DNA from: Herbaspirillum rubrisubalbicans
Lineage (GTDB): Bacteria; Pseudomonadota; Gammaproteobacteria; Burkholderiales; Burkholderiaceae_D
Length of the DNA stretch: 64,000 nucleotides
Assembly: GCF_003719195.1 (NCBI RefSeq)
Contig: NZ_CP024996.1
Span: 2,294,001-2,358,000 of the forward strand
Direction: 5' to 3'
The translations under genes and the position numbers were made by a program. A model generated the notes under the pieces. The model ran no database searches. It was not told the origin of the DNA and was given only the letters and a program-made list of their open reading frames with translations. Below are positions 35,663-58,478 of the stretch, in pieces; position 1 is the stretch's first letter, and each line of letters begins with the position of its first letter.

Positions 35663-35677
35663 TGGCGGAGACGGAGG
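35663..35677 (-). other. Candidate attL: 3' end of a tRNA-Ser-like gene
   Basis: On the minus strand the sequence CCTCCGTCTCCGCCA is the end of a class II tRNA: acceptor 3' strand CGTCTCC, discriminator G and encoded CCA, as in tRNA-Ser (GGAGACG... acceptor 5' strand). The rest of the tRNA is absent; upstream on this strand the sequence turns into phage DNA. Phages often integrate into tRNA 3' ends and leave such a fragment at one boundary, with the intact tRNA at the other, here expected beyond 64 kb. Confidence 0.6.
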
Positions 35678-35704: not shown

Positions 35705-35950
35705 TCAGTGGCGGGGTCTAGTTCGTTCGGAAGAATTTTCACCAACACTTTCACCAACATAATTCGAGTCTCTGGCTTTCATCAGCGCTTCGATCCAAGC
35801 GTCCACTTCGCTCTCAATCCAGCCCACTGCACGGCCGCCCAGCGGCACGGGTTTCGGGAACGTATTATCCCTGACTTTCTCGTGAAGCGTTGTGCGGCCG
35901 AGTTTGGTTTTGGCGATGACTTCCTTCGTGCGAAGAATGGTATGAGCCAT
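35705..35950 (-). CDS. AlpA-like DNA-binding protein (putative excisionase/regulator)
   Basis: 81 residues. ILRTKEVIAKTKLGRTTLHEKVRDNTFPKPVPLGGRAVGWIESEVDAWIEALMKARD is the AlpA/MerR-like winged helix with the FPKPV-x-L-G-R-AVGW core. Such proteins act as excisionase or as activators of integrase. It is the last gene of the leftward operon and the one nearest to the attL-like site, as expected for an excisionase. The start overlaps the stop of the upstream gene (TGATG). No integrase gene is beside it. Confidence 0.85.
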   Translation of the reverse strand: MAHTILRTKEVIAKTKLGRTTLHEKVRDNTFPKPVPLGGRAVGWIESEVDAWIEALMKARDSNYVGESVGENSSERTRPRH

Positions 35951-36840
35951 CATGCACCGCCTTCCTGATAGCGAGCCTCTGCGGCGCTCACGGCATCCTG
36001 CAATTCGGTATTGATCGCTTTTTCCCACCCCTCGCCATGCATCAGGACGGCGCGTGTCAGGCGGTGAATGACAAACGCCTGCTCTTCTTCTGCCTTGCAG
36101 GGGATCGCGTAGCCAGCGATGCGATAGATCTCGGCATAGGGCGCGCAGCGGAAGTTCGGCACGCCTAGGACACGACGCAGTTCGGGCGTCAGCTGGGCCG
36201 GGAAGATGGTCGCTTGAGTCGGGACGATGAGATCAAGTAAGGCCGCATAGGCGACGCCTGCGGCTTCCTCGTCGTGGCTGGCCATGGCATCGCCGTATGC
36301 ATTGAGGTGCTCCTGAAGTTCCCGCAGCGTTCCAGGAAAGTTCACACCGCCGCGCGGTTGCGCTGGCGAGATGAGTTGCTTTCGCGCCAACGCAATCAGC
36401 TGCAGGGTGGTGGCCGGATCTACCAGCGAGATGAACTCGTCCTGCTCCTGGGTGAGTTCAGCAATCGAGAACGGCTTGCGTGGATGATCGGCTGGCGCCG
36501 CGTCGCTCGCGATGTCGCCGGCGGCGGCCGCCGTATCGGCGATCACTTCCAGCGTCTCCAGGTTGAGCGAGAATTCCTGCGGCAGGTCATCGATCAGGCA
36601 GGCGGACAGCGAGAGAACGGCGTAGCCGGTCGGGAGGCCGAAGCCGTCGCGCAGGACGTGGGTCACCTGGCGCTGCAGTTCGGCGCCGGTGTAGCGCTCG
36701 GTGCTCGGATCGAAGCAGCACAGCTTGAGCATGTCGCCGGGTTGGTAGTCGCGATCGTTGAGGCGGAATTCATGGGTCTTGACCCCGCTCAGCAGATCGG
36801 TGAATGGCTGCGGCCAGCACTTCAGGACGTGGGTAATCAT
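35950..36840 (-). CDS. DUF3850 (ASCH-like) phage protein with C-terminal domain of unknown function
   Basis: 296 residues. The first about 80 residues (ITHVLKCWPQPFTDLLSGVKTHEFRLNDRDYQPGDMLKLCCFD...GLPTGYAVLSLS) fit DUF3850, a small PUA/ASCH-like fold thought to bind RNA. The remainder is helical and ends with a segment (VIHRLTRAVLMHGEGWEKAIN) that recurs in phage proteins but has no known role. The start has AGGAGG eight bases upstream and overlaps the preceding stop by 4 bases (ATGA). An in-frame start 30 codons earlier lies inside the upstream gene and is rejected. Confidence 0.75.
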   Translation of the reverse strand: MITHVLKCWPQPFTDLLSGVKTHEFRLNDRDYQPGDMLKLCCFDPSTERYTGAELQRQVTHVLRDGFGLPTGYAVLSLSACLIDDLPQEFSLNLETLEVIADTAAAAGDIASDAAPADHPRKPFSIAELTQEQDEFISLVDPATTLQLIALARKQLISPAQPRGGVNFPGTLRELQEHLNAYGDAMASHDEEAAGVAYAALLDLIVPTQATIFPAQLTPELRRVLGVPNFRCAPYAEIYRIAGYAIPCKAEEEQAFVIHRLTRAVLMHGEGWEKAINTELQDAVSAAEARYQEGGA

Positions 36841-37739
36841 AGGGCGGCCTCCTTCGGCTCTTTGAATGCCAGGGCGGTCTTGAACAAGGCGTTGCGTGTG
36901 GCTTGGATGTGCTTCTCGCGAAGATCCCACTGGTCGTCGTCGACAAAGCGGCCGACGTGCTCGTCCACCAGGTTGGCCAGGTAGCTCGGCGGCAGGGCGT
37001 CGAGTTCCCAGGATTCGTGGCCGAACTGGCGCAGGTAAGCCTCGAAGCGTGAATCGGTGGTCTTGGCCGGGTTCGGCGGCGGATCTTGTTCATCGATCTG
37101 GTCCATGTTCAGCGCCACGCGCTCGAAATGAAACTCCTGATTCCAGGTGAACATGGAAAGGCGCTCCTGCAGATCTCGGCTCATATCGAGGCCGCTCGGG
37201 TCGTGGTCGCCGAAATGCAGGATCACGGCGTGTTGGCCGCTGCGGTCGGCGGGCAGGAGATCTTCCTCGGCGAATTCGCGCAGCACGGTGCCGCTCGGGT
37301 AGCCGCGAGCGGCCAGTAACGGCACATCCCAGCGCCGGCAGGCGCGTTCGAGCACGCCCGCCAGGGCTTCCTTCTCCACGATGACGAAGACGCGGTGCTC
37401 CTGGTTGAGCCACATGTCAGAGTGGAAGCTGTCGGCGCAGGCGTTCAGGATCTCTTTGCCGTTCTTCCAGCTGGCCCGGCGGATGAAGTCGCGCGTCCGG
37501 TCTTCGATGGCATCCCAGTCCATCAGACCAGCGTTCCGGGCATCGTTGACGATGCCGGTCGTGCGCTTGTAGCTGCGCTCGGTGTTCTCGATGATGTCGC
37601 GCGCCACGAGCTGGTAGTACAACTGTCGGACGGTCAGGCGGTAGCCCTGGTTCACGTAGTCATCGATGATCCCGTTCATCAGATCGATGAGATGCAGGGT
37701 ATCGCGACGGAAATTGACCTCTTGGTATTGTTGTTTCAT
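36837..37739 (-). CDS. Standalone Spo11/TopVI-A-like Toprim protein
   Basis: 300 residues. The N-terminal half holds LTVRQLYYQLVARDIIENTERSYKRT (about residues 35-60), which resembles the winged-helix segment with the catalytic Tyr of topoisomerase VI subunit A and Spo11 (candidates Y41/Y42). It is followed by a Toprim domain: VFVIVEKEALAG with E122 or E124, ARGYPSG, and ILHFGDHDPSG (D168, D170). The order Tyr-domain then Toprim is that of TopVI-A. No TopVI-B-type ATPase gene is near. Such single-subunit relatives have been seen on mobile elements (I recall the name Mini-A). DNA breakage, recombination or replication resolution are possible roles. Confidence 0.7.
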   Translation of the reverse strand: MKQQYQEVNFRRDTLHLIDLMNGIIDDYVNQGYRLTVRQLYYQLVARDIIENTERSYKRTTGIVNDARNAGLMDWDAIEDRTRDFIRRASWKNGKEILNACADSFHSDMWLNQEHRVFVIVEKEALAGVLERACRRWDVPLLAARGYPSGTVLREFAEEDLLPADRSGQHAVILHFGDHDPSGLDMSRDLQERLSMFTWNQEFHFERVALNMDQIDEQDPPPNPAKTTDSRFEAYLRQFGHESWELDALPPSYLANLVDEHVGRFVDDDQWDLREKHIQATRNALFKTALAFKEPKEAAL

Positions 37740-38497
37740 GCATCTTCCCCTTCTTGGTGGGCTGCAATGCGGTCTAGACGCTCTATTTCGGCAAGGATCA
37801 GAGCACCGGCCTTCTTCAGCTCTTCGCGCCGATCACCAGGTTTCGCCCGCCAGTCAGGCGGAAGCATCGCCTCGCCGAGCGTTTCGCCGTAGCCCGTGCT
37901 GCTGGCGTCCCAGTCACGCGCGGCCGGCGGCATCGCATAGAACGCGGCCAGCGCGGAGATCTCGCCCGAAACGTGCTCATCGTCGTGCTCCAGCGTCCAG
38001 CCCTCGACATCCTGCTGCCGGCGGCGCTCAGCCAGCACGTCGCGCGCTGCAGCGTCTAAACCGTTCGCTTTCTCGGCTGGCGGGGAGTTGTATAGTAGGG
38101 CGTTAGCGCCAATCGTCTCCCAGGGCACCAGCGGCTGCATATGCCACCCATGGAGTACTGGATCATTCTTGATGACCCCGACGGCGCGGGGGAGTGCGCG
38201 GGGCTGCAGTCGCTGGAGGCGCGTCAGTTGCTCGCGCAAGCCCATCACTGTGCAGGGTTCTTCACCGCATGGAGTGCCTGCGTTGAGCGGATCGCCTTCG
38301 CCAACGACCATCAGGTGCTTGGCAATGATGCGAGCCGCCGGAGACGGATGGCCGCACCACCGATCTAGGTCGAGTATTGCAAGAAGGTAGCGGTCTGCCC
38401 GTTCTTCAGCCTTGATGGCGCGCTTGACGCCGATGAATACGCCGATGAGGTAGCCGCCAATGGCGCATGAGACGCCCAGCAGGATAATTGAAGTCAT
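37736..38497 (-). CDS. Phage protein with N-terminal membrane helix and conserved GW-EHDD-H domain
   Basis: 253 residues. The N-terminus is a membrane helix (MTSIILLGVSCAIGGYLIGVFIGVKRA). The C-terminal about 95 residues, from VLAERRRQQDVEGWTLEHDDEH to RREELKKAGALILAEIERLDR, form a domain common in phage proteins of unknown function; its Glu/Asp/His pattern could bind metal, but this is speculation. The middle (about 35-140) is not recognised. It overlaps both neighbours by 4 bases. Confidence 0.7.
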   Translation of the reverse strand: MTSIILLGVSCAIGGYLIGVFIGVKRAIKAEERADRYLLAILDLDRWCGHPSPAARIIAKHLMVVGEGDPLNAGTPCGEEPCTVMGLREQLTRLQRLQPRALPRAVGVIKNDPVLHGWHMQPLVPWETIGANALLYNSPPAEKANGLDAAARDVLAERRRQQDVEGWTLEHDDEHVSGEISALAAFYAMPPAARDWDASSTGYGETLGEAMLPPDWRAKPGDRREELKKAGALILAEIERLDRIAAHQEGEDA

Positions 38498-38958
38498 GCT
38501 TCCTCCGTCATGCTCTGGATGATGGTGGTGGTGTAGTGCTCTGTCATCGGGAGTGTCTCTTGCTTCAGGATGGCCAAGTCTCGGCGAACCGCATCAACGT
38601 CCGACTGGAAGATCATCACGCCATAGGCAAACTTGTTCGCCAACTGGCGGAGTGACCTGGTGGGCATCTCGCGACCGCTGATGCGGGCGTGCGCCTCGTA
38701 GAACTCGGCGAAGCCCTCAATGGCGCCTGCAAGGTCGTACCACGCGTGGCTGCTGGGGGCTCGATAGACGGCGCCATCGTTGTCGACATCGATGTCACCG
38801 GTGGTCTCGAGCGCCGTCAGGATATCTTCGACCGGGCCAAAGGTGGCGCGCATCCGCCATGGCATCTGAGCCATCGTGAGGCTTCCGTGGTCGCGCACCA
38901 CATGGTGCTTATGTTTCCGGGCAGCGCGCTTCGCCCGACTGCGCAGATGGCCGCTCAT
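38494..38958 (-). CDS. Phage protein of unknown function
   Basis: 154 residues. The N-terminus is very basic (RSRAKRAARKHKHH); the rest is acidic and helical with the segment PSSHAWYDLAGAIEGFAEFYEAHARISGREMPTRSLRQLANKFAYGVMI. The family is not recognised. Overlaps of 4 bases with both neighbours support it as a real gene of the leftward operon, directly downstream of the parB-like gene. Confidence 0.7.
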   Translation of the reverse strand: MSGHLRSRAKRAARKHKHHVVRDHGSLTMAQMPWRMRATFGPVEDILTALETTGDIDVDNDGAVYRAPSSHAWYDLAGAIEGFAEFYEAHARISGREMPTRSLRQLANKFAYGVMIFQSDVDAVRRDLAILKQETLPMTEHYTTTIIQSMTEEA

Positions 38959-40787
38959 ACGCGTTCCTTCGACTTCGGGAAGGGCCAGGCATCAGCCGGG
39001 TTGATGGCATCCTTCTTGGCTGCTTGCTTGGGGCGAGCTGGCTGCTTCTTCGTGGCCTTGGGCTTGGGTGCCTCGGTAGGCTCTTCAGCCGGCGCTTCCT
39101 CGGCTGACGCCATTGCATCGGCGAGCTCATTCAGCAGATCGGCCAGATGCTTGTCCTGGAGCAGGCCGATGTCGATACCGCAAATATGGCCGATTTTCTT
39201 CAGCGTTTCGTAGTGCAACAGCTGATGTTCTCGCCACTCATCCTCGACATGAATGATGCCGCCATCGATCTGGCGCGGGTACACTTGTGGAATGACGCTG
39301 AGGGTTGCATCGAGATGAAGACGGCACACGTCCTCATCCGACGCATCTTGGGCCATTTCATCCACAGCGTTCGCGTCATAAAAATCGACGCTGTAGGACT
39401 CGTCAACTCGCTTCGAGAAGCCAAGCGGTTCTGCTCGGATCGCCTGGCCTGCCGAAAAGACCGCCAGCGCCCGATAGACGGGGAGCAGAATCTGGTGATC
39501 GACCTGATCCTTGATCTCGTCTAGAAGCTCCTCGTGGAAGGCGTTGTAGCCGTCAGCGATCTTGCGGTTGATTTCCTCGATGCGTTTGCGTTGAAGCGCA
39601 GCGGGGTCTTCTGTATCGTTCTTGCGCACTGTCATCGGTGCCGGATCAGCCTCCTGTGACGCCGGCTGCATGTCTGCCTGGCTTTCTTCTTCGGTTCTCG
39701 CGAGCCCCGCCTTCTCTAGCGCACACTGGATATCGCTCTTCGAGTAGATGTTCGTGATGTGTCCAGAGAGATTCTTGAATATTCCAATAGGCTTTGGCAT
39801 TCGGTCGGTGCCGAGCAAATCGTCGACAGGCATATTCTGGTGATCGGCGTTGATAAGCCTGTCGAAGGTGCGCGCCAGAACGAAGTCCGTGCTCAGATCA
39901 CCGTTGCGCTCCGTCTTGCATTGCTCCCAGGATTCGTAGAAGCGGATTTTCTTCTTTGCGGCTTTAGCGATTTCAGCCGCATTGTGCGCCTCGGTCTTCA
40001 TTTCAAAGCAGTCGGGATCAGTGCACACGTCTGCGGTGATGTCGGGGAATTTATCGGGATCGTTTGCGGTACGCTTCGGGCATTCCGCGCATGATCCTGC
40101 TGCTCTGCAGAGCTTCGCGTCCACCAGGCTGAATGCGGCCCGATTGATGTCCAGGGTGTAACGTTGCTCGATCCAGGTCTTGGCCTGCCTGTAGGACATG
40201 GGGGAGCCTGCTCCATTGTTTGTCAGCACTTCAGCTGCAGCGCGTTCCTGGAGGCTTGCTACTGGAATGCGTGCGATGAGCAGTGCCGTCGAGGGTGCCA
40301 GCCGCCCATCATTCAATCCGACTCGTGCTTCGGCGCAGAGATCGAGCAACTGCAGGCGTGAATAGGCCCAGCGGCGCTTAACTCCCAGCTCGGTGCAAAT
40401 ATCATCGATCTTCAGTCCGTGGTCGCGCATGGCGCGCTCCATGGCTTCGGCTTCTTCGAGCGGTGGCACGCCGGCGCGCTGGTGGTTTTCGACCAGCTGG
40501 ATGATGGCCACCTCGGCATCGGTCAGTTGACGCACAATGCCGGGAATCTCGGTCAGGCCGGCGAGCTGAGACGCACGATAGCGGCGCTCTCCCGCAACCA
40601 GTTGCAGGCGCGTATCGCTATCCTCGATGGTGCGCAACAGAATGGGCTGGATAACGCCGCTGACCTTGATGCTGTCCGCCAGCTCCTGCAGGGCGTTTTC
40701 ATCAAATGTCCGTCGCGGCTGGTTGGGGTCGGTCTCGATGAATTGCAGCGGGATCATCCCGAACTGCGCTTGGGTGACTTGATTCAT
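38955..40787 (-). CDS. ParB/Spo0J-like DNA-binding protein
   Basis: 610 residues, much longer than chromosomal ParB (about 300). The N-terminal part is ParB-like: PNQPRRTFDENALQELADSIKVSGVIQPILLR, LVAGERRYRAS (CTP/partner-binding motif, about 66-73), QLVENHQR (about 98-104) and a helix-turn-helix at about 125-145. A Cys-rich segment CRAAGSCAECPKRT...DVCTDPDCF (about 230-265) may bind zinc. The C-terminal half is acidic and ends in a Lys/Ala/Pro-rich tail. No parA lies beside it. Phage ParB-like proteins of this type may organise or protect replicating DNA or regulate genes. The start was set by GGAG six bases upstream. Confidence 0.85.
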   Translation of the reverse strand: MNQVTQAQFGMIPLQFIETDPNQPRRTFDENALQELADSIKVSGVIQPILLRTIEDSDTRLQLVAGERRYRASQLAGLTEIPGIVRQLTDAEVAIIQLVENHQRAGVPPLEEAEAMERAMRDHGLKIDDICTELGVKRRWAYSRLQLLDLCAEARVGLNDGRLAPSTALLIARIPVASLQERAAAEVLTNNGAGSPMSYRQAKTWIEQRYTLDINRAAFSLVDAKLCRAAGSCAECPKRTANDPDKFPDITADVCTDPDCFEMKTEAHNAAEIAKAAKKKIRFYESWEQCKTERNGDLSTDFVLARTFDRLINADHQNMPVDDLLGTDRMPKPIGIFKNLSGHITNIYSKSDIQCALEKAGLARTEEESQADMQPASQEADPAPMTVRKNDTEDPAALQRKRIEEINRKIADGYNAFHEELLDEIKDQVDHQILLPVYRALAVFSAGQAIRAEPLGFSKRVDESYSVDFYDANAVDEMAQDASDEDVCRLHLDATLSVIPQVYPRQIDGGIIHVEDEWREHQLLHYETLKKIGHICGIDIGLLQDKHLADLLNELADAMASAEEAPAEEPTEAPKPKATKKQPARPKQAAKKDAINPADAWPFPKSKERV

Positions 40788-42392: not shown

Positions 42393-42788
42393 TTACTTGT
42401 GCCGCCTTTGGGCAAGCTCCTCGATTAGCTCAAAGTTGGCTTGTTTCGTAGCTTCAAGAGTCCTGATTATTTCGTCTTGCTGCTTCGAGGTAAGTCCATC
42501 GAATAACTGCAAGAGCACGACCTGTCGCGCCGACAGATCACCTGGCACGTCGCTGTCGTTGGAGGCGCTGTCTTGATGCTTTACGTCTGTTTCCATGCGT
42601 AGATAGGCCGGATCGACGTCCAGCGCTTTCGCAATATCCAGCAGGCTTTCTCCGTACCCCCTGATCCCCGATTCTATATTGCCAATTGTTCCTTGGGTCA
42701 AGCCGGCCCTTTGCGCAAGCTGCGCTTGCGTTAGTTGCTTGGCTTTTCGGGTGGCGCGAAGCCGTGCGCCCAAGGTTTCTTTGTTCAT
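42393..42788 (-). CDS. Phage repressor (Xre-type, no peptidase domain)
   Basis: 131 residues. LGARLRATRKAKQLTQAQLAQRAGLTQGTIGNIESGIRGYGESLLDIAKALDVDPAYL is a classic Xre helix-turn-helix. The C-terminal 60 residues are helical and lack the S24 Ser-Lys autocleavage domain of lambda CI, so it should not be inactivated by RecA-stimulated cleavage. Operator clusters with the same dyad flank the gene on both sides and cover the two early promoters, which marks it as the immunity repressor. A gap of about 185 bases separates it from the leftward operon. Confidence 0.88.
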   Translation of the reverse strand: MNKETLGARLRATRKAKQLTQAQLAQRAGLTQGTIGNIESGIRGYGESLLDIAKALDVDPAYLRMETDVKHQDSASNDSDVPGDLSARQVVLLQLFDGLTSKQQDEIIRTLEATKQANFELIEELAQRRHK

Positions 42789-42860: not shown

Positions 42861-43136
42861 ATGAAACCACTCGACAAAGCCATTGATATTGCGCGGGGAG
42901 TGTCCAGGCTGGCGGACCAGATTGGCGTTGGGCAGTCCGTTGTTAGCAATTGGAGAAGGCGCGGCACGTTGATTGAGCCGCTGCTCTGCGCTCGGATTGA
43001 AAAAGTCACCCGAGGTGAGGTGAAGCGGCAAGACCTGCGCCCCAAGGATTGGCAGGAGATCTGGCCTGAGCTCGTGGCGAGCGGCCCCATTACCCGTCGC
43101 GATGAGCCCAGCGATGCAGGCCAGGGTGCGAGGTAG
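42861..43136 (+). CDS. YdaS/Cro-like regulator
   Basis: 91 residues. LDKAIDIARGVSRLADQIGVGQSVVSNWRRRGTLIEPLLCARIEKVTRGEVKRQDLRPKDWQEIWPEL is the YdaS_antitoxin/Cro-like fold with the VVSNW recognition helix. In lambdoid phages this gene takes the place of cro. No ribosome binding site precedes the ATG and the predicted promoter would start the mRNA almost at it, so the message may be leaderless. The last about 15 residues overlap a leftward ORF. Confidence 0.85.
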   Translation: MKPLDKAIDIARGVSRLADQIGVGQSVVSNWRRRGTLIEPLLCARIEKVTRGEVKRQDLRPKDWQEIWPELVASGPITRRDEPSDAGQGAR

Positions 43137-44093: not shown

Positions 44094-44319
44094 ACTCCAC
44101 CTGGACGAGATTTGGACCGCGCGTCTTAAGCCGATAGAAGTCCAGGCCGCTGAAGTCGAGGTGGTCGTTGTCATCGAATCCGGCGAGCAGTCTCTTGAAG
44201 GCACCAATAGTCAGCAGGGCAGGGCGATTTGTTTTCACGAAGGCTCCAGTGATGGGCTGTTGAGTGTTTTCGGAATATATCACGGCGCAATATTCGCCTA
44301 AATACGAGGGAGTACACAT
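44035..44319 (-). CDS. Probable leftward protein of unknown function
   Basis: 94 residues: MCTPSYLGEYCAVIYSENTQQPITGAFVKTNRPALLTIGAFKRLLAGFDDNDHLDFSGLDFYRLKTRGPNLVQVEFNQQVYRNAEGDVVVENLE reads like a compact alpha/beta protein and is far more convincing than the plus-strand ORF in the same place. The start is uncertain: the ATG has no ribosome binding site and overlaps, on the opposite strand, the ATG of the next rightward gene (CATG). Its 3' end overlaps the preceding rightward gene by 59 bases. Confidence 0.5.
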   Translation of the reverse strand: MCTPSYLGEYCAVIYSENTQQPITGAFVKTNRPALLTIGAFKRLLAGFDDNDHLDFSGLDFYRLKTRGPNLVQVEFNQQVYRNAEGDVVVENLE

Positions 44320-44785
44320 GAATTTACGCCAAGCACACCAGGGAATGATTGATGCCTTCCCAGGGGGATGGGATGCCATGGCGGCCGCTTTGGGAATGAC
44401 CCGAGATGCGCTCTCGAACCGCGTCTATGAGCGCAAGGGCCAAGCAGTCCGCACGCAACACTCGCTGGAGATGCAGGCCTTCACCAGCACTACGCTCTTC
44501 GCTGAAGCTATAGCGGCGGCGAGCGGTGGTGTATTCGTCAAGCTGATCACGCCTGGCAGCGTCGACCGCGAAGACCTGCATTCGAAGTTCCAGGAGCTGT
44601 GGGCGCGCCTTGGCGAATTGTCTCGGGCGTATACCGCCTATACGGATGACAACCACATCGATGCCCGTGAGAAGGCAGACCTGCAGCGCATCTCTAACGA
44701 GATTCAGCGCACTATGCAGGAACTCATGGCGCTCATGTTCCAGATCTATTGCAGCCACGAGCAGGAGCCGGTGAGTGGAGCTTGA
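44318..44785 (+). CDS. YmfL/CII-like phage regulator
   Basis: 155 residues. The N-terminal half (LRQAHQGMIDAFPGGWDAMAAALGMTRDALSNRVYERKGQAVRTQHSLEMQAFTST) is the YmfL family known from the e14 prophage: a CII-like helix-turn-helix that meets its DNA before a long C-terminal helix. In lambdoid layouts this position (after cro, before the replication genes) is that of cII. The ribosome binding site GAGGGAG is strong. It overlaps the primase gene by 11 bases. Confidence 0.8.
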   Translation: MNLRQAHQGMIDAFPGGWDAMAAALGMTRDALSNRVYERKGQAVRTQHSLEMQAFTSTTLFAEAIAAASGGVFVKLITPGSVDREDLHSKFQELWARLGELSRAYTAYTDDNHIDAREKADLQRISNEIQRTMQELMALMFQIYCSHEQEPVSGA

Positions 44786-47285
44786 GGACTTCGATGCGGT
44801 CAATGCGGCCGCGCTGGCCTCGCTGGATTCGCTGCTGGCTCAATGGTTTCCAAACGGCGTTGTTGACGGCGCCGAGTTCTGCATTGGTTCCCTCTCCGGC
44901 GAAGCCGGCAAATCCTTGCGTGTTCGCCTGAAAGGCGACAAAGCTGGTTTTTGGTCTGATTTTTCCATGGACGGCGAAGCCGGCCGTGATCCTATCTCGC
45001 TCTACGCGGCGAAGGAATCCATCTCCCAAGGGAAAGCTTGTGCTCACCTCGCTCGCGAGCTGGGCATCGCTATTCACGGCGCAGATAAGGTCAAGAGAAT
45101 TCCTAACGGAACTCCCTATTTGCCACAGAAATCAGCGCCTGCGCAAGCCGGCAAAGGGGTAGGAGCACCTCCGAAGGAGAAGAAATCCACTAGTTCCTGG
45201 TGCCCGATTCTGCCTATTCCCGAGGCGGCGTTACCGTATCCCGTCGCTCATCCAGTGCGAGGACGGCCGCAGATGGTTTGGGAGTATCGGGACCAGCAGC
45301 GGCAGCTTTTAGGCATCGTTTGTCGCTTCGTCACATCGGACGGTGGCAAGGAAGTTTTGCCATGCGTTTACGCGCAGGATGAGAACACCGGCAATAGGAA
45401 ATGGCATTGGATTCAGTGGCGTGAGCCACGGCCCCTTTACCTTCCTCAACCGCTCAGGGAAGGCTTCCCTGTTTTGGTGGTAGAGGGAGAGAAGTGCGCT
45501 GACGCGGCTAGGGCCGCTGTGGGCGACGCGTGGGATGTCGTGTCTTGGCCTGGTGGTGGGAAGGCGGTCAAGAAAGTTGATTGGTCGCTGCTAGCCGGCC
45601 GTTCGTTGCTCTTATGGGCAGATGCCGATGCGCAGCGCTACAAAGAGAACCACGCGAAGGCTGGCGAGATAAAGCCAGAAGTCGAGCAGCCGGGTATGGT
45701 TGCGATGCAAGCGGTGGCCGAGTTGAATTTTTCCCAGGGCTGCTCGATCCAATTCGTCGATATTCCTCCTCCAGGCGAGGTCGAGGATGGTTGGGATGTG
45801 GCCGATCTGATTGCTGCGGGCGGAACGAAAGAGGATGTGTGTGCGTGGCTTGCCCACGTGCGGCCTGCTTGGGTGGCCAAGTCTGTAGAGGAGGCGGCAG
45901 CGCCCGCATCGCCAGCAGCGGTCAGCGATGACAGCGTGCCTGCATGGGTCGATGCGCCGCCTACGCCAGAGGATGTACCCCAACGTCCGGCTAGCGCAGG
46001 CAGCATGGACCGCGCGCAGATCAAGGCGATGATGCTCTATGGGGCGACCGGTGTGAAGCCTTGCCGGGAAAACGTCTTCCTAGCGCTGACCCATGATCCC
46101 GACCTGCACGGGATCGTGGCCTTCGACAAGTTTTCTGAGCTGCTCATGAAGCGGCGTGATCCACCCTGGGAGTCTGAGCCCGGTGAGTGGACGGAAAGTG
46201 ACGACTTCTTCCTGGGCCTGTTCCTTGGTCAGCATTACGGCCTGATCGTATCGAGCATCGGTGAAATCGAGAAGGCAGTGGCGCAGGTCGCTCGCCGCCA
46301 TGCATTCAATCCGGTTACGGACTACATGTCCGAGTGTGAGGCGAAGTGGGACGGCAAGCCTCGCGTGGCGGATGCCTTCCATCGCTACTGGGGAGCGGAA
46401 GATTCCGACTACACGCGCCTGGTCTCGACGATGTTCCTTGTCGGCCTCGCGGCCCGTGCTTACGTACCCGGCATCAAGCATGACTGCGCGCCGGTATTTG
46501 AGGGCGGGCAGGGCGCGGGTAAGTCCACGGCGCTGGAGGTGCTGGGCGGGGCTTGGTACGCGGACACTCCCTTCCGGATGGGGGAGAAAGACGGCTATCT
46601 GTCGATCCAGGGCATCCTGCTGTATGAGGTTGCTGAGTTGGAGCAATTCAACCGATCAGAAGTGACGGCGGTTAAGGCATTCATGTCGAGTAAGAAGGAC
46701 CGATTTCGCGAGCCGTATGGCAGGCGTATGCGCAACCTTCCTCGGCGCACGCTCTTTGCTGCGACGACGAACGAAGGGCAGTACTTCAAAGACCCGACAG
46801 GCAGCCGACGGTTCTGGCCGGTGAAATGTGGCCGCGTCGATACGGTAGGCCTGGCCGAGGTGAGGGACCAGTTGTTCGGCGAAGCTGTCGCAATGTGGCG
46901 CAGGGGAGTTAAGTGGTATGCCACGCGTGACCAGGATGTCCGCTTGATCATGCCGGCGCAGGACGACCGCGAGATCCCGGACCAATGGATCGGACGGCTG
47001 TACGACTACGTGGAAGGAATTGATGCCGATGGTAATTCCTTGAGTGTTCGTAAGCTGGATCGTGTGACGGCGCGCGAGCTGCTTACGCGGGCCTTGCACA
47101 TCGAGATCGGCAAGCTCTCGCAGTCGAAGAACGAAACCATGCGCATCTCGGCGTGTATGCGCAAGCTGGGATGGGAGAAGGAGCGTGATCCAAACGGGGC
47201 GCGGGAGTATTTTTACGTGCGTCCGAAGCCGGCTGTTGTCGAGCCAAAGATGGCAGAGGAGGGCGATTATGCGATCCCCTTCTAG
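44775..47285 (+). CDS. Toprim-VirE primase-helicase
   Basis: 836 residues, the main replication protein. An N-terminal primase-like region (KAGFWSDFSMDGEAGRDPISLYA) leads to a Toprim domain (about 232-290: VLVVEGEKCADAA with the catalytic Glu, LLLWADADAQ with DxD). After a Pro/Ala-rich linker the C-terminal half is a VirE-type superfamily-3-like helicase: Walker A EGGQGAGKST, Walker B LLYEVAELEQFNR, sensor ATTNEGQYFKDPTGSRRFWPV. Start is GTG with GGAG upstream, inside the end of the ymfL-like gene. It probably loads on the repeat-rich DNA immediately downstream. Confidence 0.88.
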   Translation: MELEDFDAVNAAALASLDSLLAQWFPNGVVDGAEFCIGSLSGEAGKSLRVRLKGDKAGFWSDFSMDGEAGRDPISLYAAKESISQGKACAHLARELGIAIHGADKVKRIPNGTPYLPQKSAPAQAGKGVGAPPKEKKSTSSWCPILPIPEAALPYPVAHPVRGRPQMVWEYRDQQRQLLGIVCRFVTSDGGKEVLPCVYAQDENTGNRKWHWIQWREPRPLYLPQPLREGFPVLVVEGEKCADAARAAVGDAWDVVSWPGGGKAVKKVDWSLLAGRSLLLWADADAQRYKENHAKAGEIKPEVEQPGMVAMQAVAELNFSQGCSIQFVDIPPPGEVEDGWDVADLIAAGGTKEDVCAWLAHVRPAWVAKSVEEAAAPASPAAVSDDSVPAWVDAPPTPEDVPQRPASAGSMDRAQIKAMMLYGATGVKPCRENVFLALTHDPDLHGIVAFDKFSELLMKRRDPPWESEPGEWTESDDFFLGLFLGQHYGLIVSSIGEIEKAVAQVARRHAFNPVTDYMSECEAKWDGKPRVADAFHRYWGAEDSDYTRLVSTMFLVGLAARAYVPGIKHDCAPVFEGGQGAGKSTALEVLGGAWYADTPFRMGEKDGYLSIQGILLYEVAELEQFNRSEVTAVKAFMSSKKDRFREPYGRRMRNLPRRTLFAATTNEGQYFKDPTGSRRFWPVKCGRVDTVGLAEVRDQLFGEAVAMWRRGVKWYATRDQDVRLIMPAQDDREIPDQWIGRLYDYVEGIDADGNSLSVRKLDRVTARELLTRALHIEIGKLSQSKNETMRISACMRKLGWEKERDPNGAREYFYVRPKPAVVEPKMAEEGDYAIPF

Positions 47286-50146: not shown

Positions 50147-50160
50147 TAGGGGGTTATGTG

Positions 50161-50676
50161 ATGGATCTGGAGGCCAAGACGACTCAGGCCGCGTTCGGCG
50201 CGCTGGTCGGAATCAGCCAGCCAGCCGTCAGCGAACTCCTCACGCGCGGCATTCTTCAGCCCGGTGAGCCGGCTGGCGTCTGGCTGAAAGCGTATTGCAC
50301 GAACCTGCGCGAGCAGGCCGCCGGCCGATTCGCTGCTGGCGAGCTGGATCTGGCGACGGAGCGCGCCGCGCTCGCGCGTGCACAGCGCGAGAAGGTGGAG
50401 ATGCAGAACGCGGTCACGCGACGCGAGCTGGCGCCGGTCGCACTCCTGGAGCAGGTGCTCTCGAAGGTCGGCCGGCAGATCGCTGGCATCCTGGAAGCGG
50501 TGCCGGTGCAATTGAAACGGCGCTCCCAGCTCTCTGCGGATGATCTGGACTTCATCACGCGCGAGCTGGTCAAGGCGCGCAACCATGCGGCCGCCATCAA
50601 ATTAGCGGACCTCGACGACGAAGATGATAGCGAGGCCGCAGAAAGCGACCTCGAAGATGGATCTGAAGGAGATTGA
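50161..50676 (+). CDS. Terminase small subunit (Nu1-like)
   Basis: 171 residues. The N-terminal winged helix (TTQAAFGALVGISQPAVSELLTRGILQPGEPAGVWLKAYCTNLREQAAGR) and the charged coiled-coil middle (LDLATERAALARAQREKVEMQNAVTRRELAPVALLEQVLSKVGRQIAGILEAVPVQLKRR) match Nu1. It recognises cos and starts packaging with the large subunit. AGGGGG lies seven bases before the ATG; a GTG one codon earlier is possible. It overlaps the large subunit gene. Confidence 0.88.
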   Translation: MDLEAKTTQAAFGALVGISQPAVSELLTRGILQPGEPAGVWLKAYCTNLREQAAGRFAAGELDLATERAALARAQREKVEMQNAVTRRELAPVALLEQVLSKVGRQIAGILEAVPVQLKRRSQLSADDLDFITRELVKARNHAAAIKLADLDDEDDSEAAESDLEDGSEGD

Positions 50677-52696
50677 ACGCGCGATCGCAGCGGGCCTGGA
50701 ATCGCTGGCGGCCGTTGAGCCAATGAGGCTGTCGGAATGGGCCGCCAAGAATTTTTACCTGTCGGCCGAGTCGTCCTATGTCGAGCAGGCGTGGGAAGCG
50801 TATCCCTACCAGGTCGCCATCATGGACGCGATGTCCAATGATGAGATCGAAGAAGTCACCTTCATGAAGTCGGCCCGGGTCGGCTATACGAAGATGATCC
50901 TGGCGGCGGTCGGCTACTTCGCCGAACACAAGCGGCGCAACCAGGCGCTGTGGCAACCGACAGACGACGACAGCGACGAGTTCTGCAAGACCGAGTTGGA
51001 ACCGATGCTGCGTGACGTGCCCGCGATGATGAAGGTATTCCCGAGCTTCCAGGCCAAGAGCAAGGCAAACACCTTGCGGCAGAAGAAGTTCCTGACTTCG
51101 GTCTTGCACCTGCGGGGCGGCAAGGCCGCGAAGAACTACCGACGCCTGTCGGTCGACGTGTCGATCCTGGACGAGGTGGATGGTTTCGACCAGAACGTGG
51201 AGAAGGAAGGCAGCCCGATCACCCTGGCGCGCAAGCGCATCGAGGGCGCTACCTTCCCGAAGCTGATTGGCGGGTCTACCCCGAAGCTGAAGGGGCTCTC
51301 GCTGATCGAGGCGCGGCATGACCAGGCCGACCTGCAGTTCAAGCGGCACATCCCTTGCAAGCATTGCGGCGAGATGATCACCCTGCGCTGGGGTGGCAAG
51401 GATAAGTCCTTCGGGATGAAGTGGATCAATGACGATCCGTCGACCGTGATGCACATGTGTGATCTGTGCGACGGGCAGATGACCCAGGCGGACTATCTGG
51501 AGGCGTGGGGGCAGGGCCGCTGGATCGCGCAGGACGGATCCTACATCGATGACGGTGATGGCAGCTTTCACGCGCCGGATGGCGCCCGGATCCCGGTACC
51601 GAAGAAAGTGGCCTTCCATGTTTGGACGGCCTACAGCCCGCAGACCAGCTGGGCGCAGATCGTGGACGAATTCTTGTCGGCGCAGCGCAAGGCCAAGACC
51701 GGTGACAAGTCGGAGCTGCAGACCTTCGTCAACACGACGTTGGGCGAGACCTGGGAGGAGGATGTCGAGAAGGCTGACATCCATGCGTTGATGCAGCGGG
51801 CAGAGCCGTACCCCCTTCGCGTGGTCCAGATGGGCGGCCTGGTGCTGGTGGCGGGGATCGACGTCCAGGACAACCGCTTCGAGGTGGTGGTTTGGGCGGT
51901 TGGACGCGGCGAGGAGATGTGGGTGGTCGACTACATGGTCCTGGCGGCGAATCCGGCGGTACCGGCTGACTGGGAGAAGCTGTCCTTCTATATGGAGACG
52001 CGGTTTCAGCACATGGCGGGCGGGACGCTGGGCGTCGAGGGGTACACCATCGATACTGGTGGCCACTTCACGCACCAGGCCTATGCCTGGGCGCGGATGC
52101 AGCAGGCGAAGGGTCGGCGCTGCTTTGCCAGCAAGGGCGACTCTCGCCTCGGCGGGCCCGTGAAAGGGCGCTCGTCCCTGCAGGACGTGAACATTGCAGG
52201 CCAGGTAATCAAGAACGGCATCAGGCTCTGGCTTGTGGGTACCGACACGGCAAAGGATTTGATCTTCGGGCGGTTGAACGTGACGGTGTCGGGGCCAGGT
52301 TGCCTGCACTTCTCGCAGGATCTGCCCGCCGAGTTCTACCACCAGCTGACAGCCGAAGCACGCGTCAAGGTGCGCACGGCCTCCGGTGAGCAGTATCGCT
52401 GGGTGCCGCTACGCAAACGCAACGAGGTGCTGGACTGCACGGTGCTGGCCATGTTCTCTGCGCACATGCTTGACCTGCACCGCTATACCGAGCGGATGTG
52501 GGAACGCCTTGAGGCCGCAGTACAGCCTTCAGTCGCTGACATGTTCGCATCGCCGCCACCGGCGCCCATGGCATCGGCCGGCCCATCCGAGTCGATAGAA
52601 ATCAACAATCCACCCGCGCGGGTGCAAGTACCTGCACCGATGCCGCCGCCGTCCTCTGGTGGGCGGCGGGTCCGCTCGCGCGGGATTGAACGATAG
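50657..52696 (+). CDS. Terminase large subunit (lambda gpA-like)
   Basis: 679 residues from this start. It aligns along its length with lambda gpA: TFMKSARVGYTKM (Walker-A-like, about 69-80), ALWQPTDDDSDEFCKTELEPMLRDVPAM, GGKAAKNYRRLSVDVSILDEVDGFD (Walker B region), EGSPI...KRIEG, HIPCKHCGE, FHIWTAYSP-like FHVWTAYSPQTSW, and the nuclease part (VAGIDVQDNRFEVVVWAVG, YTIDTGG, WVPLRKRNEVLDCTVLAMFSAHML). It powers DNA packaging and cuts cos. An in-frame ATG 11 codons upstream (50624) is an alternative. The C-terminal 50 residues are Pro-rich. Confidence 0.95.
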   Translation: MDLKEIERAIAAGLESLAAVEPMRLSEWAAKNFYLSAESSYVEQAWEAYPYQVAIMDAMSNDEIEEVTFMKSARVGYTKMILAAVGYFAEHKRRNQALWQPTDDDSDEFCKTELEPMLRDVPAMMKVFPSFQAKSKANTLRQKKFLTSVLHLRGGKAAKNYRRLSVDVSILDEVDGFDQNVEKEGSPITLARKRIEGATFPKLIGGSTPKLKGLSLIEARHDQADLQFKRHIPCKHCGEMITLRWGGKDKSFGMKWINDDPSTVMHMCDLCDGQMTQADYLEAWGQGRWIAQDGSYIDDGDGSFHAPDGARIPVPKKVAFHVWTAYSPQTSWAQIVDEFLSAQRKAKTGDKSELQTFVNTTLGETWEEDVEKADIHALMQRAEPYPLRVVQMGGLVLVAGIDVQDNRFEVVVWAVGRGEEMWVVDYMVLAANPAVPADWEKLSFYMETRFQHMAGGTLGVEGYTIDTGGHFTHQAYAWARMQQAKGRRCFASKGDSRLGGPVKGRSSLQDVNIAGQVIKNGIRLWLVGTDTAKDLIFGRLNVTVSGPGCLHFSQDLPAEFYHQLTAEARVKVRTASGEQYRWVPLRKRNEVLDCTVLAMFSAHMLDLHRYTERMWERLEAAVQPSVADMFASPPPAPMASAGPSESIEINNPPARVQVPAPMPPPSSGGRRVRSRGIER

Positions 52697-52704
52697 GAAA
52701 CGAT

Positions 52705-52938
52705 ATGTCCGGTATCACTCTGGATCAAGCCCAGGCACAACTCGCCGCTTGGCTGGCCGCCAGCCTGGCCGTCTCGCAGAATCAGGAGTACAGCATCGGT
52801 ACCCGAAAACTGCGTCGCGCCGATGCCGCTGTGATCAGGGAGCAGATCACCTACTGGCAGGGCATTGTGGCGCAACTCTCCGCCGCCGCGAGCGGCCGCC
52901 GTCGCGGTTTGAACATCAGCTATGGGGTGCCGCAATGA
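52705..52938 (+). CDS. Small head-joining protein (gpW/DUF6148-like)
   Basis: 77 residues: an Ala-rich helix (LDQAQAQLAAWLAASLAVSQ), a short hairpin (EYSIGTRKLRRAD), and a second helix ending in GRRRG, similar in order to lambda gpW, which sits between terminase and portal and joins head and tail. The stop overlaps the portal start (ATGA). Confidence 0.75.
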   Translation: MSGITLDQAQAQLAAWLAASLAVSQNQEYSIGTRKLRRADAAVIREQITYWQGIVAQLSAAASGRRRGLNISYGVPQ

Positions 52939-54503
52939 ACGCCCGAGGCAAGCTGCAGCTGGCGCCCAACGTGATCGATAAGGTGGTCTCGTACTTCGAT
53001 CCCGTCGCTGGCACGCGACGGATGCAGGCCCGCGCACACATGGCGATCGCGGGATCGTATGTGGGGGCTGATCGCAGTCGGCGAAGCTTTCGCAATTGGT
53101 TCACCTCGGGCAAGAGTGCCGACGACGACCTTCTGCCCGATTTGGCCACGCTGCGAGAGAACTCGCGGGATCTCATGCGCAATGCCCCGCTGGCCGGCGG
53201 TGTGATCAATACGGTGGTGACGAACGTCGTGGGTACTGGCCTGGCCATGCGGCCGTCCATTGATGGCGATCTCCTCGGCATGAGCGATGACCAGGTACAA
53301 GCCTGGCAGCGCTCGGTCACCCGCGAGTTCCAGCTGTGGGCAGAGAACGCGCTTGAGTGCGATTCCACCGGTACGCAGATCTTCTACGACCTCCAGGACC
53401 TTGCACTGCGCTCTGCGCTGGTCAACGGCGACGCCTTTGCTGTGCTGCCGTCGAACCGCGTGGATAACTGCGTGTATGCGACGAAGGTCCAGTTGATCGA
53501 GGGGGATCGAGTCGCGACTCCGCCCGATCTGCTCGGAAAAGGGAATGTCTTCGGTGGGATCGAGCTTGATGGCTACGGCGCCATGGCAGCGGTGCATGTG
53601 TGTGACCAGCATCCGGGCAGTGTCCGGATGGGCAAGAAGCTGTCCTTCACACGGATCGCCGCGCGAGGCTCCCAGACTGGGCGGCGCAATGTGGTGCATC
53701 TGTTCAAGCGGTTGCGACCCGATCAGCATCGTGGTGAGCCCTATCTGGCGGCGGTGATCGAGCCGCTGAAGCAGCTTGATCGCTACACCGAGGCCGAAAT
53801 CATGGCCGCCGTCGTCTCGGGCATGTTCACGGTTTTCATCGAGCATGAGGCAGACCAGAATCAGCCTGTAGAACTTTACGGCCAGGAAGAGAAGGCCGCG
53901 CCGGAATTGGCGCTCCAATCCGGTGCCATTATCGACCTGGCCAAGGGCGAGAAGGTGAACACGGCCAATCCCGGCCGGCCGAATGCCCAGTTCGATCCGT
54001 TCGTGATGGCGATCCTCCGCCAGATCGGCGTCAACCTGGAGCTGCCGTTCGAAGTGCTGATCAAGCATTACACGGCCAGCTACAGCGCGGCGCGGGCGGC
54101 CATGCTGGATGCCTGGAAGTTCTTCCGGGTGCGCCGGGCCTGGTTGGCGTCGAACTTCTGCCAGCCAATCTATGAGACTTGGCTTGCCGAGGCGGTCGCC
54201 ATCGGCCGCCTCAGCGCGCCTGGCTTCTTTGCGGACGCCGGATTGCGCCGTGCCTGGTGCCAGGCGGTGTGGCTGGGCGACGGTCCCAGCAGTTTGGACC
54301 CGCTGAAGGAAGCCAGTGCCATCGAGAAGCGTGTCGATATCGGCGTGACGACGTTGGAGGAAGAAGTGGCGGCCTACGACGGCGGCGACTGGGAGACCAA
54401 GCACAAGCAGCGCGTGAAGGAACAGCGGATGCGCCGCGAAGGCGGTCTGTTGGACGCGGCGCCGAGCACTCCTCCGCCGGATTTGCCGCCGGATCCAGAT
54501 TGA
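52935..54503 (+). CDS. Portal protein (lambda gpB family)
   Basis: 522 residues. LRENSRDLMRNAPLAGGVINTVVTNVVGTGLAMRP, DLQDLALRSALVNGDAFAVLP, VVHLFKRLRPDQHRGEPYLAAVIEPLKQLDRYTEAEIMAAVVSGMFTVFIE and LELPFEVLIKHYTASYSAARAAMLDAWKFFRVRRAWLASNFCQPIYETWL are all features of the lambda-type portal. It forms the dodecameric ring through which DNA enters the head. A strong terminator follows. Confidence 0.95.
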   Translation: MNARGKLQLAPNVIDKVVSYFDPVAGTRRMQARAHMAIAGSYVGADRSRRSFRNWFTSGKSADDDLLPDLATLRENSRDLMRNAPLAGGVINTVVTNVVGTGLAMRPSIDGDLLGMSDDQVQAWQRSVTREFQLWAENALECDSTGTQIFYDLQDLALRSALVNGDAFAVLPSNRVDNCVYATKVQLIEGDRVATPPDLLGKGNVFGGIELDGYGAMAAVHVCDQHPGSVRMGKKLSFTRIAARGSQTGRRNVVHLFKRLRPDQHRGEPYLAAVIEPLKQLDRYTEAEIMAAVVSGMFTVFIEHEADQNQPVELYGQEEKAAPELALQSGAIIDLAKGEKVNTANPGRPNAQFDPFVMAILRQIGVNLELPFEVLIKHYTASYSAARAAMLDAWKFFRVRRAWLASNFCQPIYETWLAEAVAIGRLSAPGFFADAGLRRAWCQAVWLGDGPSSLDPLKEASAIEKRVDIGVTTLEEEVAAYDGGDWETKHKQRVKEQRMRREGGLLDAAPSTPPPDLPPDPD

Positions 54504-54518
54504 TTCTTGAACCCTGAC

Positions 54519-54544
54519 GGGCCTCGCATTGCGGGGCCCTTTTT
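54519..54544 (+). terminator. Terminator between portal and protease genes
   Basis: GGGCCTCGC/GCGGGGCCC 9-bp stem (one GT pair), loop ATT, then TTTTT. It ends 11 bases before the next start codon and occupies the place of its ribosome binding site. Confidence 0.8.
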
Positions 54545-54555
54545 ACTTCCAAGTC

Positions 54556-55986
54556 ATGAAACTGATCGAAATCCTCACCAGTCCCTGGGCGATTCAGCCG
54601 GAAAAGCTGTGCGAGATCCAGGGCATCTACGCTACGCATCTGCGCGGCGAGAAGATCGACATCGAGGCCATCGAAGCGCGCCTGAATCGGCCCCTATCGA
54701 GCGAGCAGCAGGACTACGAGATCCGGGATAACGGTGTCGCGGTCCTGTCGGTGGACGGCGTGATCGCACCGAAGGCCAATCTCTTCACCCGCGTGAGCGG
54801 CGGCGCCTCGGCCCAGCTGCTCATCAAGCAGGTCGAGTCGGCCATCGCCGACCCGCGCGTGAGCGGCTTGGTGCTGGCGGTGGACTCGCCTGGAGGCAGC
54901 GTGCTGGGTACGCCCGAGCTGGCCGCCACCATCCGCGAGCTGTCGGCCGAGAAGCCGATCGTCACCGTCTCCGAGGGCACGCTGGCCAGCGCTGCGTATT
55001 GGTTCGGCTCTGCCGCCAACGCGGTCTACATCAGCGGCCCGACCGTCAATGTCGGCAGCATCGGCGTGGTGATGACGCATGACTACAGCCCGCGCGCGAC
55101 CGGTGGCCAGGCCACCGAGATCACGGCCGGCCGCTATAAGCGGATCGCCTCCAGCGTGGCCCCGCTCACCGCCGAAGGTAAGCAGTACCTGCAGGACCAG
55201 GTGGATCACATCTACTCGGTCTTTGTGGATGCCGTAGCCGATCACCGGGGCGTTGCTGCCGAGGATGTGGTGCAGCACATGGCCGATGGCCGCGTGTTCA
55301 TCGGTCAGCAGGCGGTTGACGCCGGCTTGGTAGATGGCATGGCCACCGTGGACGCCATCGTGCAGCAGATGGCGGCCGATCCAAACCAGTTTTCAGCGCG
55401 TCGCGTCGCTCAAATCGCGGCGAAATCCAATACTGCAGCCGGCGCCGGTGGTGCGCTGGGCGGCAGTACTTCTCCAACTGTGGCCAGCGCCGGTGCTGCG
55501 AAGAGCCACGATCCTATCCATGAGGAAAATGAAATGCCCGACCCCGTTGCAACCGTTCTGACCCGTGAAGCGCTGGAGCGCGATCACGCCCCGTTGTATG
55601 CGCAGCTGCGTACCGATTTCATGGCCGAGGGTGCCGCCAGCGAGCGCCAGCGCATCCTGGGCATCGAGGCGCACTCGATGCCGGGCCATGAAGCCCTGAT
55701 CTCGACCTTGAAGGCGGACGGCAAGACCACTCCGGACCAAGCCGCCGCCCAGGTGCTGGGCGCCGAGAAGACGAAGCTGGCCGCCATGGCGACCAATCTG
55801 AAAGGCGATGCACCTGATCCGGTGAAGCCGACCGACGATCCGCAGGCAACCTCGGTGAAGAAGCCGACCCATGAGGCGATCGCCGCACGTGCGCAGGAGA
55901 TCGTGACGGCAGAAAGCAACGCCGGTCGCCGCATTTCCTATGCCCAGGCGGCGGCCCGCGCCAATACCGAACTGTCCGCAGCCTGA
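54556..55986 (+). CDS. Head maturation protease with scaffold domain (S49 family, lambda C/Nu3-like)
   Basis: 476 residues. The N-terminal about 270 residues are an S49 (SppA-type) peptidase: AVLSVDGVIAPKAN, LVLAVDSPGGSVLG, VTVSEGTLASAAYWFGSAA with the likely nucleophile Ser in LASAAYW, VGSIGVVMTHDY, and the general-base Lys in GRYKRIAS. A linker leads to a C-terminal scaffold of about 150 residues with an internal start (see nested entry). In lambda, C and Nu3 have the same relation. No clear ribosome binding site lies before the ATG. Confidence 0.93.
   Translation: MKLIEILTSPWAIQPEKLCEIQGIYATHLRGEKIDIEAIEARLNRPLSSEQQDYEIRDNGVAVLSVDGVIAPKANLFTRVSGGASAQLLIKQVESAIADPRVSGLVLAVDSPGGSVLGTPELAATIRELSAEKPIVTVSEGTLASAAYWFGSAANAVYISGPTVNVGSIGVVMTHDYSPRATGGQATEITAGRYKRIASSVAPLTAEGKQYLQDQVDHIYSVFVDAVADHRGVAAEDVVQHMADGRVFIGQQAVDAGLVDGMATVDAIVQQMAADPNQFSARRVAQIAAKSNTAAGAGGALGGSTSPTVASAGAAKSHDPIHEENEMPDPVATVLTREALERDHAPLYAQLRTDFMAEGAASERQRILGIEAHSMPGHEALISTLKADGKTTPDQAAAQVLGAEKTKLAAMATNLKGDAPDPVKPTDDPQATSVKKPTHEAIAARAQEIVTAESNAGRRISYAQAAARANTELSAA
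55534..55986 (+). CDS. Nested scaffold protein (Nu3-like) with internal start
   Basis: 150 residues, in frame within the protease gene. The ATG (MPDPVATVLTREALERDH) is preceded by GAGGAAAATGAA, a better ribosome binding site than the one of the full gene. The product is acidic, helical and Ala-rich, as scaffolds are. In lambda, Nu3 is made this way from inside C. Separate production of the scaffold is inferred. Confidence 0.65.
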   Translation: MPDPVATVLTREALERDHAPLYAQLRTDFMAEGAASERQRILGIEAHSMPGHEALISTLKADGKTTPDQAAAQVLGAEKTKLAAMATNLKGDAPDPVKPTDDPQATSVKKPTHEAIAARAQEIVTAESNAGRRISYAQAAARANTELSAA

Positions 55987-56030
55987 TCGGCGGACGGCCT
56001 ACTTCCTCCAATTCATCGAAAGGAACCGCA

Positions 56031-56405
56031 ATGCGCGTCCCCAATACCGTACTCAACTACACGGCCGAAACCGCCCTGGCCAAGTTCCGCATCGTCTGCT
56101 ACGGCGCCACCGATGGCTCCGTGAAGCAGGCGGCGGCCTCCACCGATCTGATGATCGGCGTCACTGAAGGCTTTGCCTACGCTGCCGGCGATCGCGCCGA
56201 CATCGTGCGCAGCGGCCCGGCCGAGATCGAGTTCGGCGGCCCTGTTACCCGTGGCCAGCCGCTGACCTCGGACGCACTCGGTCGCGCCATCGCCGCTGCT
56301 CCGGCCGCCGGTGTCAATGCCCGGATCATCGGCTATGCCGAGGTTTCGGGCGTCCTGGGCGACATCGGCAGCGTGTACGTCGGCGCCGAGATGATCCAGG
56401 GCTAA
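56031..56405 (+). CDS. Head decoration protein (DUF2190/gpD-like)
   Basis: 124 residues, Gly/Ala-rich with short strands: LMIGVTEGFAYAAGDRADIVRSGPAEIEFGGPVTRGQPLTSDALGRAIAAAPA and ARIIGYAEVSGVLGDIGSVYV. This pattern (G-V-x-x-x-A-x-x-G-D-x-x-D-V-x-x-x-G) is the DUF2190-type capsid decoration fold. The position between the protease/scaffold and the major capsid protein is that of lambda D. AAAGGAACC precedes the ATG. Confidence 0.85.
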   Translation: MRVPNTVLNYTAETALAKFRIVCYGATDGSVKQAAASTDLMIGVTEGFAYAAGDRADIVRSGPAEIEFGGPVTRGQPLTSDALGRAIAAAPAAGVNARIIGYAEVSGVLGDIGSVYVGAEMIQG

Positions 56406-56459
56406 GGCTTCCTGGTCCCGTTCGCCTCTTTCATTCCCATTCCAATTTAGGAGCCAAGC

Positions 56460-57392: not shown

Positions 57393-57416
57393 GCGGCGTG
57401 GCTGGATCCAAACTGC

Positions 57417-57441
57417 GGCTCGCCTTGGCGGGCCTGTTTTT
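57417..57441 (+). terminator. Terminator after the major capsid gene
   Basis: GGCTCGCC/GGCGGGCC stem (small loop, one GT pair) followed by TGTTTTT. Confidence 0.65.
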
Positions 57442-57462
57442 CATCCCTGAATAGGAGTCAAC

Positions 57463-57624: not shown

Positions 57625-57630
57625 GCGGCC

Positions 57631-57927: not shown

Positions 57928-57928
57928 C

Positions 57929-58468: not shown

Positions 58469-58478
58469 GAGCAACGCA

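What the first reader, a model, noticed from the sequence alone, without database searches (positions are those of the whole stretch)
36837..40787. Spo11/TopVI-A-like protein and an oversized ParB-like protein in one phage early operon
The 300-residue product at 36837-37739 has a TVRQLYYQL segment like the catalytic Tyr region of TopVI-A/Spo11 followed by a Toprim domain (E122/E124, D168-x-D170), with no TopVI-B ATPase gene nearby. Two genes upstream lies a 610-residue ParB-like protein with a GERRYRAS motif and a Cys-rich zinc-type segment but no ParA. They are the only recognisable enzyme or DNA-organising factors in the leftward operon. A DNA-breaking enzyme and a DNA-sliding clamp-like protein under repressor control could form a replication, recombination or host-takeover module that has not been described.
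Basis: partly seen in the sequence, partly recalled or inferred. Interest (0 to 1): 0.8.

Follow-up and report, generated by a model that had tools for sequence, protein, structure and literature searches.

The report
Known phage Mini-A topoisomerase-like protein
A virus resident in a bacterial chromosome carries a small DNA-cutting enzyme of an already named family (Mini-A, relatives of the protein that starts meiotic recombination); the neighbouring ParB-like gene does not look like its partner, so the find is mostly ordinary, although what Mini-A does for phages remains open.

Summary
The model (pLDDT 94) has a winged-helix Tyr domain and a Toprim domain; TopVI-A ranks first for each, tied with other rows. 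The gene lies in a 39-kb prophage of a contractile-tailed phage at tRNA-Ser(GCT), in six genes joined by ATGA overlaps.

The proposed module with ParB is not supported. None of 87 loci of that ParB family encodes Mini-A; 3 of 80 Mini-A loci have a ParB within 10 kb; the nearest ParB phages carry other genes in the slot. Elsewhere Mini-A sits among replication and recombination genes, or, in one other prophage read, beside excisionase and integrase. Best reading: an accessory Spo11-type DNA-breaking enzyme without its ATPase. Catalytic type is well supported; its role is inferred. New member of a known kind.

The parts
36837..37739 (-). Mini-A (stand-alone TopVI-A/Spo11-like protein, 300 aa): winged-helix Tyr domain about 11-82 (Y42), Toprim part about 106-264 (E122, D178, D180), C-terminal helices
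38955..40787 (-). ParB/RepB/Spo0J-like protein, 610 aa (ParB_N, HTH_ParB, Cys4 segment); a separate family that does not travel with Mini-A
38494..38958 (-). 154-aa protein of unknown function, next to the ParB gene in relatives too (55-95% identity in L083, L131, L130, L128, L127)
37736..38497 (-). 253-aa protein; C-terminal part (about 130-251) matches phage families of unknown function
35950..36840 (-). DUF3850/ASCH protein (my start choice: ATG at 36840; the longest ORF starts at 36930)
35705..35953 (-). AlpA-type regulator/excisionase (my start choice: ATG at 35953; the longest ORF starts at 36028)
42393..42788 (-). Cro/CI-type repressor
42861..43136 (+). YdaS/Cro-like regulator, divergent from the repressor
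44264..44785 (+). CII-like activator
44775..47285 (+). VapE-type primase/helicase (rightward replication gene)
50158..62968 (+). Terminase, portal, protease, major head, sheath, tube, tape measure genes: contractile-tailed phage
35663..35677 (.). 15-bp putative left att repeat; its twin is the 3' end of tRNA-Ser(GCT) at L095:11492-11506, beside an integrase at L095:10098-11423

Best explanation
The protein is a phage Mini-A: a homologue of the TopVI-A/Spo11 subunit reduced to the winged-helix Tyr domain and the Toprim domain, without an ATPase partner. Supported by sequence and model: family membership, the active-site residues, the fold, and the genomic position. Inferred from TopVI-A: it works as a dimer in which Y42 of one subunit, with metal held by E122/D178/D180 of the other, breaks both DNA strands with a 5'-phosphotyrosyl link and a short overhang. 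Inferred from its neighbourhood in other phages: it serves replication or recombination of the phage genome, making or resealing breaks that feed annealing/recombination proteins or relieve topological strain. In this prophage it is an accessory gene in a variable slot of the leftward (immunity-to-excision) operon; the ParB-like protein is a separate component of this prophage type.
Confidence: 0.75

Rival explanations
1. Mini-A and the ParB-like protein form one functional module (sliding clamp plus DNA breaker).
For: Same operon, with five of five junctions from ParB to AlpA overlapping as ATGA; both families have a member whose longest contig is 353,244 bases, in Herbaspirillum seropedicae (P0002 94%, P0127 73%).
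Against: 0 of 87 ParB loci encode Mini-A; 52 of the 87 have 3 kb or more downstream of ParB. 3 of 80 Mini-A loci, alike in ORF size and score, have a ParB, of another size and 8-9 kb away. The closest ParB relatives keep ParB and its 154-aa neighbour without Mini-A. None of the 57 ParB phage records is among the 60 listed (of 75) Mini-A phage records.
Confidence: 0.05
2. Mini-A is a lysogenic-conversion or superinfection nuclease: expressed from the prophage, it cuts DNA of competing phages or plasmids, as the related JetD/MksG nucleases do with plasmids.
Against: MksG has no tyrosine candidate in the domain equivalent to the winged helix (PMC10123090 passage), whereas Y42 is invariant here; in 5 of the 6 annotated phage stretches read Mini-A has replication or nucleotide-metabolism genes close by (in JWF, mostly hypothetical genes); the ten prophage proteins scanned gave only two weak defence hits, E 0.019 and 0.028.
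Confidence: 0.2
3. A true topoisomerase without its own ATPase (strand passage or relaxation, alone or with a host factor).
For: Active-site residues complete as far as compared; a topo VIII is reported to relax DNA without ATP (PMC7614492 passage).
Against: No TopVI-B transducer match in the host genome; no TopVI-B-like family among the 9 (of 11) recurrent neighbour clusters scanned.
Confidence: 0.2

Closest known systems
Mini-A (Takahashi et al. 2020, paper not held; exemplar Pseudomonas phage NP1)
   Same: Size, single-subunit winged-helix plus Toprim, phage-encoded, no B subunit; 56% identity over 294 aa
   Different: Sits on the immunity-to-integration side of a temperate phage instead of a replication module
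DNA topoisomerase VI A subunit / Spo11
   Same: Active-site residues and spacing; TopVI-A ranks first for both domains
   Different: About 60 fewer residues before the Tyr; no TopVI-B; sequence too far for confident profile matching
JetD / MksG (Wadjet) nuclease
   Different: MksG lacks the winged-helix tyrosine (PMC10123090); Mini-A has it in 68 of 68 rows, and no SMC partner was found in the ten proteins scanned
ParB/RepB/Spo0J family: Burkholderiales prophage ParB (phages Aval, VarioGold), PRTRC ParB
   Same: ParB_N and HTH, place downstream of the repressor and opposite a VapE-like primase; PRTRC ParB model matches at E 6.7e-40
   Different: No Mini-A there; PRTRC score 137 is below that model's cut-off of 278.6; no ParA in this prophage

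Membership tests
Mini-A | Sequence family of the named exemplar (phage NP1 protein) | tested here: met
   56% over 294 aa; phrog_6247. NP1 as exemplar: PMC7614492 Fig. 4 legend; that its 'DNA topoisomerase' gene is the meant protein is inferred
Mini-A | Winged-helix domain with catalytic Tyr | tested here: met
Mini-A | Toprim with E and DxD | tested here: met
Mini-A | No fused or adjacent B-type ATPase | tested here: met
   PF09239: 0 matches in the whole genome
Mini-A | DNA cleavage activity | not testable with these tools
   needs biochemistry
DNA topoisomerase VI | Heterotetramer with TopVI-B | tested here: not met
   no TopVI-B transducer match in the genome
Topo VIII | A- and B-type domains in one protein (recalled; the review passage says usually a homodimer) | tested here: not met
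   the 300 aa hold only winged helix and Toprim
JetD/MksG | No catalytic Tyr in the winged-helix-like domain | tested here: not met
   Y42 invariant; MksG described without it (PMC10123090)
JetD/MksG | Encoded with an SMC (JetABC/MksBEF) complex | tested here: inconclusive
   only ten prophage proteins were scanned against the defence library; two weak hits, none SMC
ParABS partition system (for 38955-40787) | Partner ParA ATPase encoded nearby | tested here: not met
   0 of 7 AAA_31 places lie in the prophage

The most novel reading that the evidence does not exclude
Phage Mini-A is a stand-alone, ATPase-free Spo11: it makes programmed Tyr-linked double-strand breaks that start phage genome recombination, and temperate phages have moved it to the immunity-to-excision side to act at induction or against co-infecting phages.
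Probability: 0.2. Interest if true: 0.75.

Novelty: new member of a known kind. Interest (0 to 1): 0.3.

Why it matters
The find adds a clear temperate-phage member with the active-site residues intact to a widespread family (7,160 of 8,000 scored candidates at E 0.001 or better; 75 of 50,697 phage records). One review calls its function unknown (PMC8084294) and another notes no characterisation of archaeal members (PMC8185306). Stand-alone Spo11-type enzymes could show what the core does without its ATPase regulator. It also closes a false lead: the ParB link looks like a coincidence of phage mosaicism.

Tried and rejected
ParB-Mini-A module: rejected on co-occurrence. TopVI-A by profile-profile comparison: weak, Toprim only. 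Sequence search of solved structures with P0001 (no match to E 10) and with A1 (best E 0.18 to an unrelated ribosome-biogenesis protein). Whole-model structural re-alignment covered only the Toprim part, so the N-terminal domain was modelled alone; JetD is not among its 50 listed rows, which shows nothing. Two searches of the viral collection with single ParB proteins gave 2 and 1 loci, so an alignment was used. Paper searches listed reviews and phage genome papers, or nothing; I saw listings and some passages, and none of what I saw reports an experiment on a phage Mini-A. The original Mini-A paper is not held. A search for Herbaspirillum prophage papers gave a listing that I did not follow. 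Base composition: GC 0.52-0.65 across 34.5-43.5 kb, no sharp island at the gene.

Full report
What is there. The ORF at 36837-37739 (minus strand, 300 aa) and the ParB-like ORF at 38955-40787 (minus, 610 aa from the ATG at 40787) are real. They belong to a chain ParB, 154-aa gene, 253-aa gene, Mini-A, DUF3850, AlpA whose five junctions overlap as ATGA when the last two genes are given the starts at 36840 and 35953, so they are probably one translationally coupled operon. It runs from a CI-type repressor (42393-42788) towards the left end of a prophage. The left end is a 15-bp repeat at 35663-35677; its twin is the 3' end of tRNA-Ser(GCT) at L095:11492-11585, beside an integrase at L095:10098-11423. 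That makes an element of about 39.3 kb (genome positions 2329663-2369005) with terminase, portal, head, sheath and tape-measure genes and a rightward VapE-type primase. Not every gene of it was annotated.

Identity of the 300-aa protein. PHROG 6247 'DNA topoisomerase' matches at E 5.5e-125 over nearly the full length and matches 73 of 73 members of the alignment. Of 8,000 scored candidates 7,160 are relatives at E 0.001 or better; 75 of 50,697 phage records and 39 of 72,556 plasmid records have one, two of the latter annotated as Topo Mini-A. [quoted passage not shown] passages and figure legend seen). The NP1 'DNA topoisomerase' is 56% identical to ours over 294 aa. That this annotated gene is the one the review means is an inference.

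Active site. In 68 rows T36, R38, Y42, E122, K123, D178, D180, G183, W244, E245 and D247 do not vary; Y41 is F in two rows, and position 124 is E, D or A. A count over 76 ORFs agrees; before it I dropped L001 and L002 (the window again), L064, L066, L069 and L071 (long, partial, split or interrupted). The 73-row alignment agrees too. Archaeal TopVI-A (23 rows) has E-K, D-x-D-x-x-G and E-x-[ED]-A in the same order, and T-x-R...Y, which was the picking regex and so is no test. The structure paper PMC13040014 (passages seen) names the M. mazei site R102, Y106, E202, D254, D256, E342; R38/Y42 have the same spacing as R102/Y106. Taking E245 as the counterpart of E342 is my inference from the motif.

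The ParB-like neighbour. It has ParB_N (E 1.3e-30), HTH_ParB and four invariant Cys. Of the seven AAA_31 places in the genome none is in the prophage. The best 80 of 277 confirmed viral loci of this ParB family plus seven others (L085, L086, L126-L130) make 87 loci, not de-duplicated (L130 and L132 are the same contig; L129 is a shortened ParB in the window's own genome); 0 of 87 encode Mini-A at E 1e-5. Of the 87, 52 have 3 kb or more and 69 have 1.5 kb or more downstream of ParB, where it would be expected. Conversely 3 of 80 Mini-A loci (L017, L018, L020, alike in ORF size and score) have a ParB, 277 and 273 aa as first called, 8-9 kb away; flanks of the 80 vary and some are short. The closest ParB relatives show the slot directly: L083 (ParB 82%) has the 154- and 253-aa genes, an 84-aa ORF and then an AlpA-like ORF, with neither Mini-A nor DUF3850; L128 has DUF3850 but no Mini-A; L131 and L130 have other genes. 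Apart from the window's own genome, the one contig length I saw in both protein lists (120 shown in each) is 353,244, H. seropedicae, with Mini-A at 94% and ParB at 73%. Mini-A was found in 1 of 100 relatives' genomes, the window's own, and in 1 of 34 of its genus, again its own. The annotated phages Aval and VarioGold have the ParB operon opposite a 'virulence protein E' or 'topoisomerase-primase' gene, and neither held stretch has Mini-A.

Where Mini-A lives elsewhere. In NP1 and PaMx25 it lies between DNA ligase (one small gene apart) and a Sak4-like annealing protein, near RNase H, ThyX, primase and helicase; in BP12C (Chivirus) next to ThyX; in Brevundimonas phage Delta after ThyX; in Lumi near helicase and DNA polymerase genes; in JWF mostly among hypothetical genes. 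In 71 de-duplicated loci, with crude gene picking that lost Mini-A itself in 13, eleven neighbour clusters recur in four or more loci; nine were scanned: helicases (11 and 4 loci), a family of unknown function (8), exonuclease, HNH and DnaB (6 each), DNA polymerase (5), RusA and RecT (4 each). No fixed partner is visible. In another temperate phage, in Pseudomonas khazarica (L072), the order is VapE-type primase and a regulator on one side, then a CI-type repressor, Mini-A, an unknown gene, excisionase and integrase, with a 4-base overlap after Mini-A and no ParB.

How it most likely works. Shown by sequence or model: the catalytic residues, the two-domain core, no B-subunit match, the position. 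Inferred from TopVI-A and Spo11: dimer, Tyr42 attack, 5' covalent link. Inferred from neighbours: a replication or recombination role. [quoted passage not shown] Whether it religates, relaxes or only breaks DNA is open.

Verdict. A new member of a named family, in an accessory slot; the claimed module looks like a coincidence. Interest is modest, carried by the unresolved function of Mini-A. On rechecking I corrected the make-up of the 87 loci, the count of neighbour clusters and the fold ties; none changes the odds.

Noticed in passing
L071:8234-10558 (+): A Mini-A ORF of 774 aa is interrupted just before the Toprim E-K by a long stretch that begins with C and ends HN before C, which looks like an intein at the catalytic motif.
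   Followed up: no
L129 (own genome, C1:4286000-4302000): A second prophage with a nearly identical repressor operon, where the ParB match keeps only residues 1-53 and 568-608 and the VapE-type match covers 294 of 836 residues.
   Followed up: partly
L064:9812-11326 (+): Mini-A with a long C-terminal extension (504-aa ORF).
   Followed up: no
plasmid hits: 30 of 39 plasmid records with Mini-A relatives are Streptomyces plasmids, at about 30% identity in the rows listed.
   Followed up: no
34751-35366 (-): HigA-like antitoxin and a HigB-like ORF just outside the left att repeat (names recalled from the sequences, not searched).
   Followed up: no
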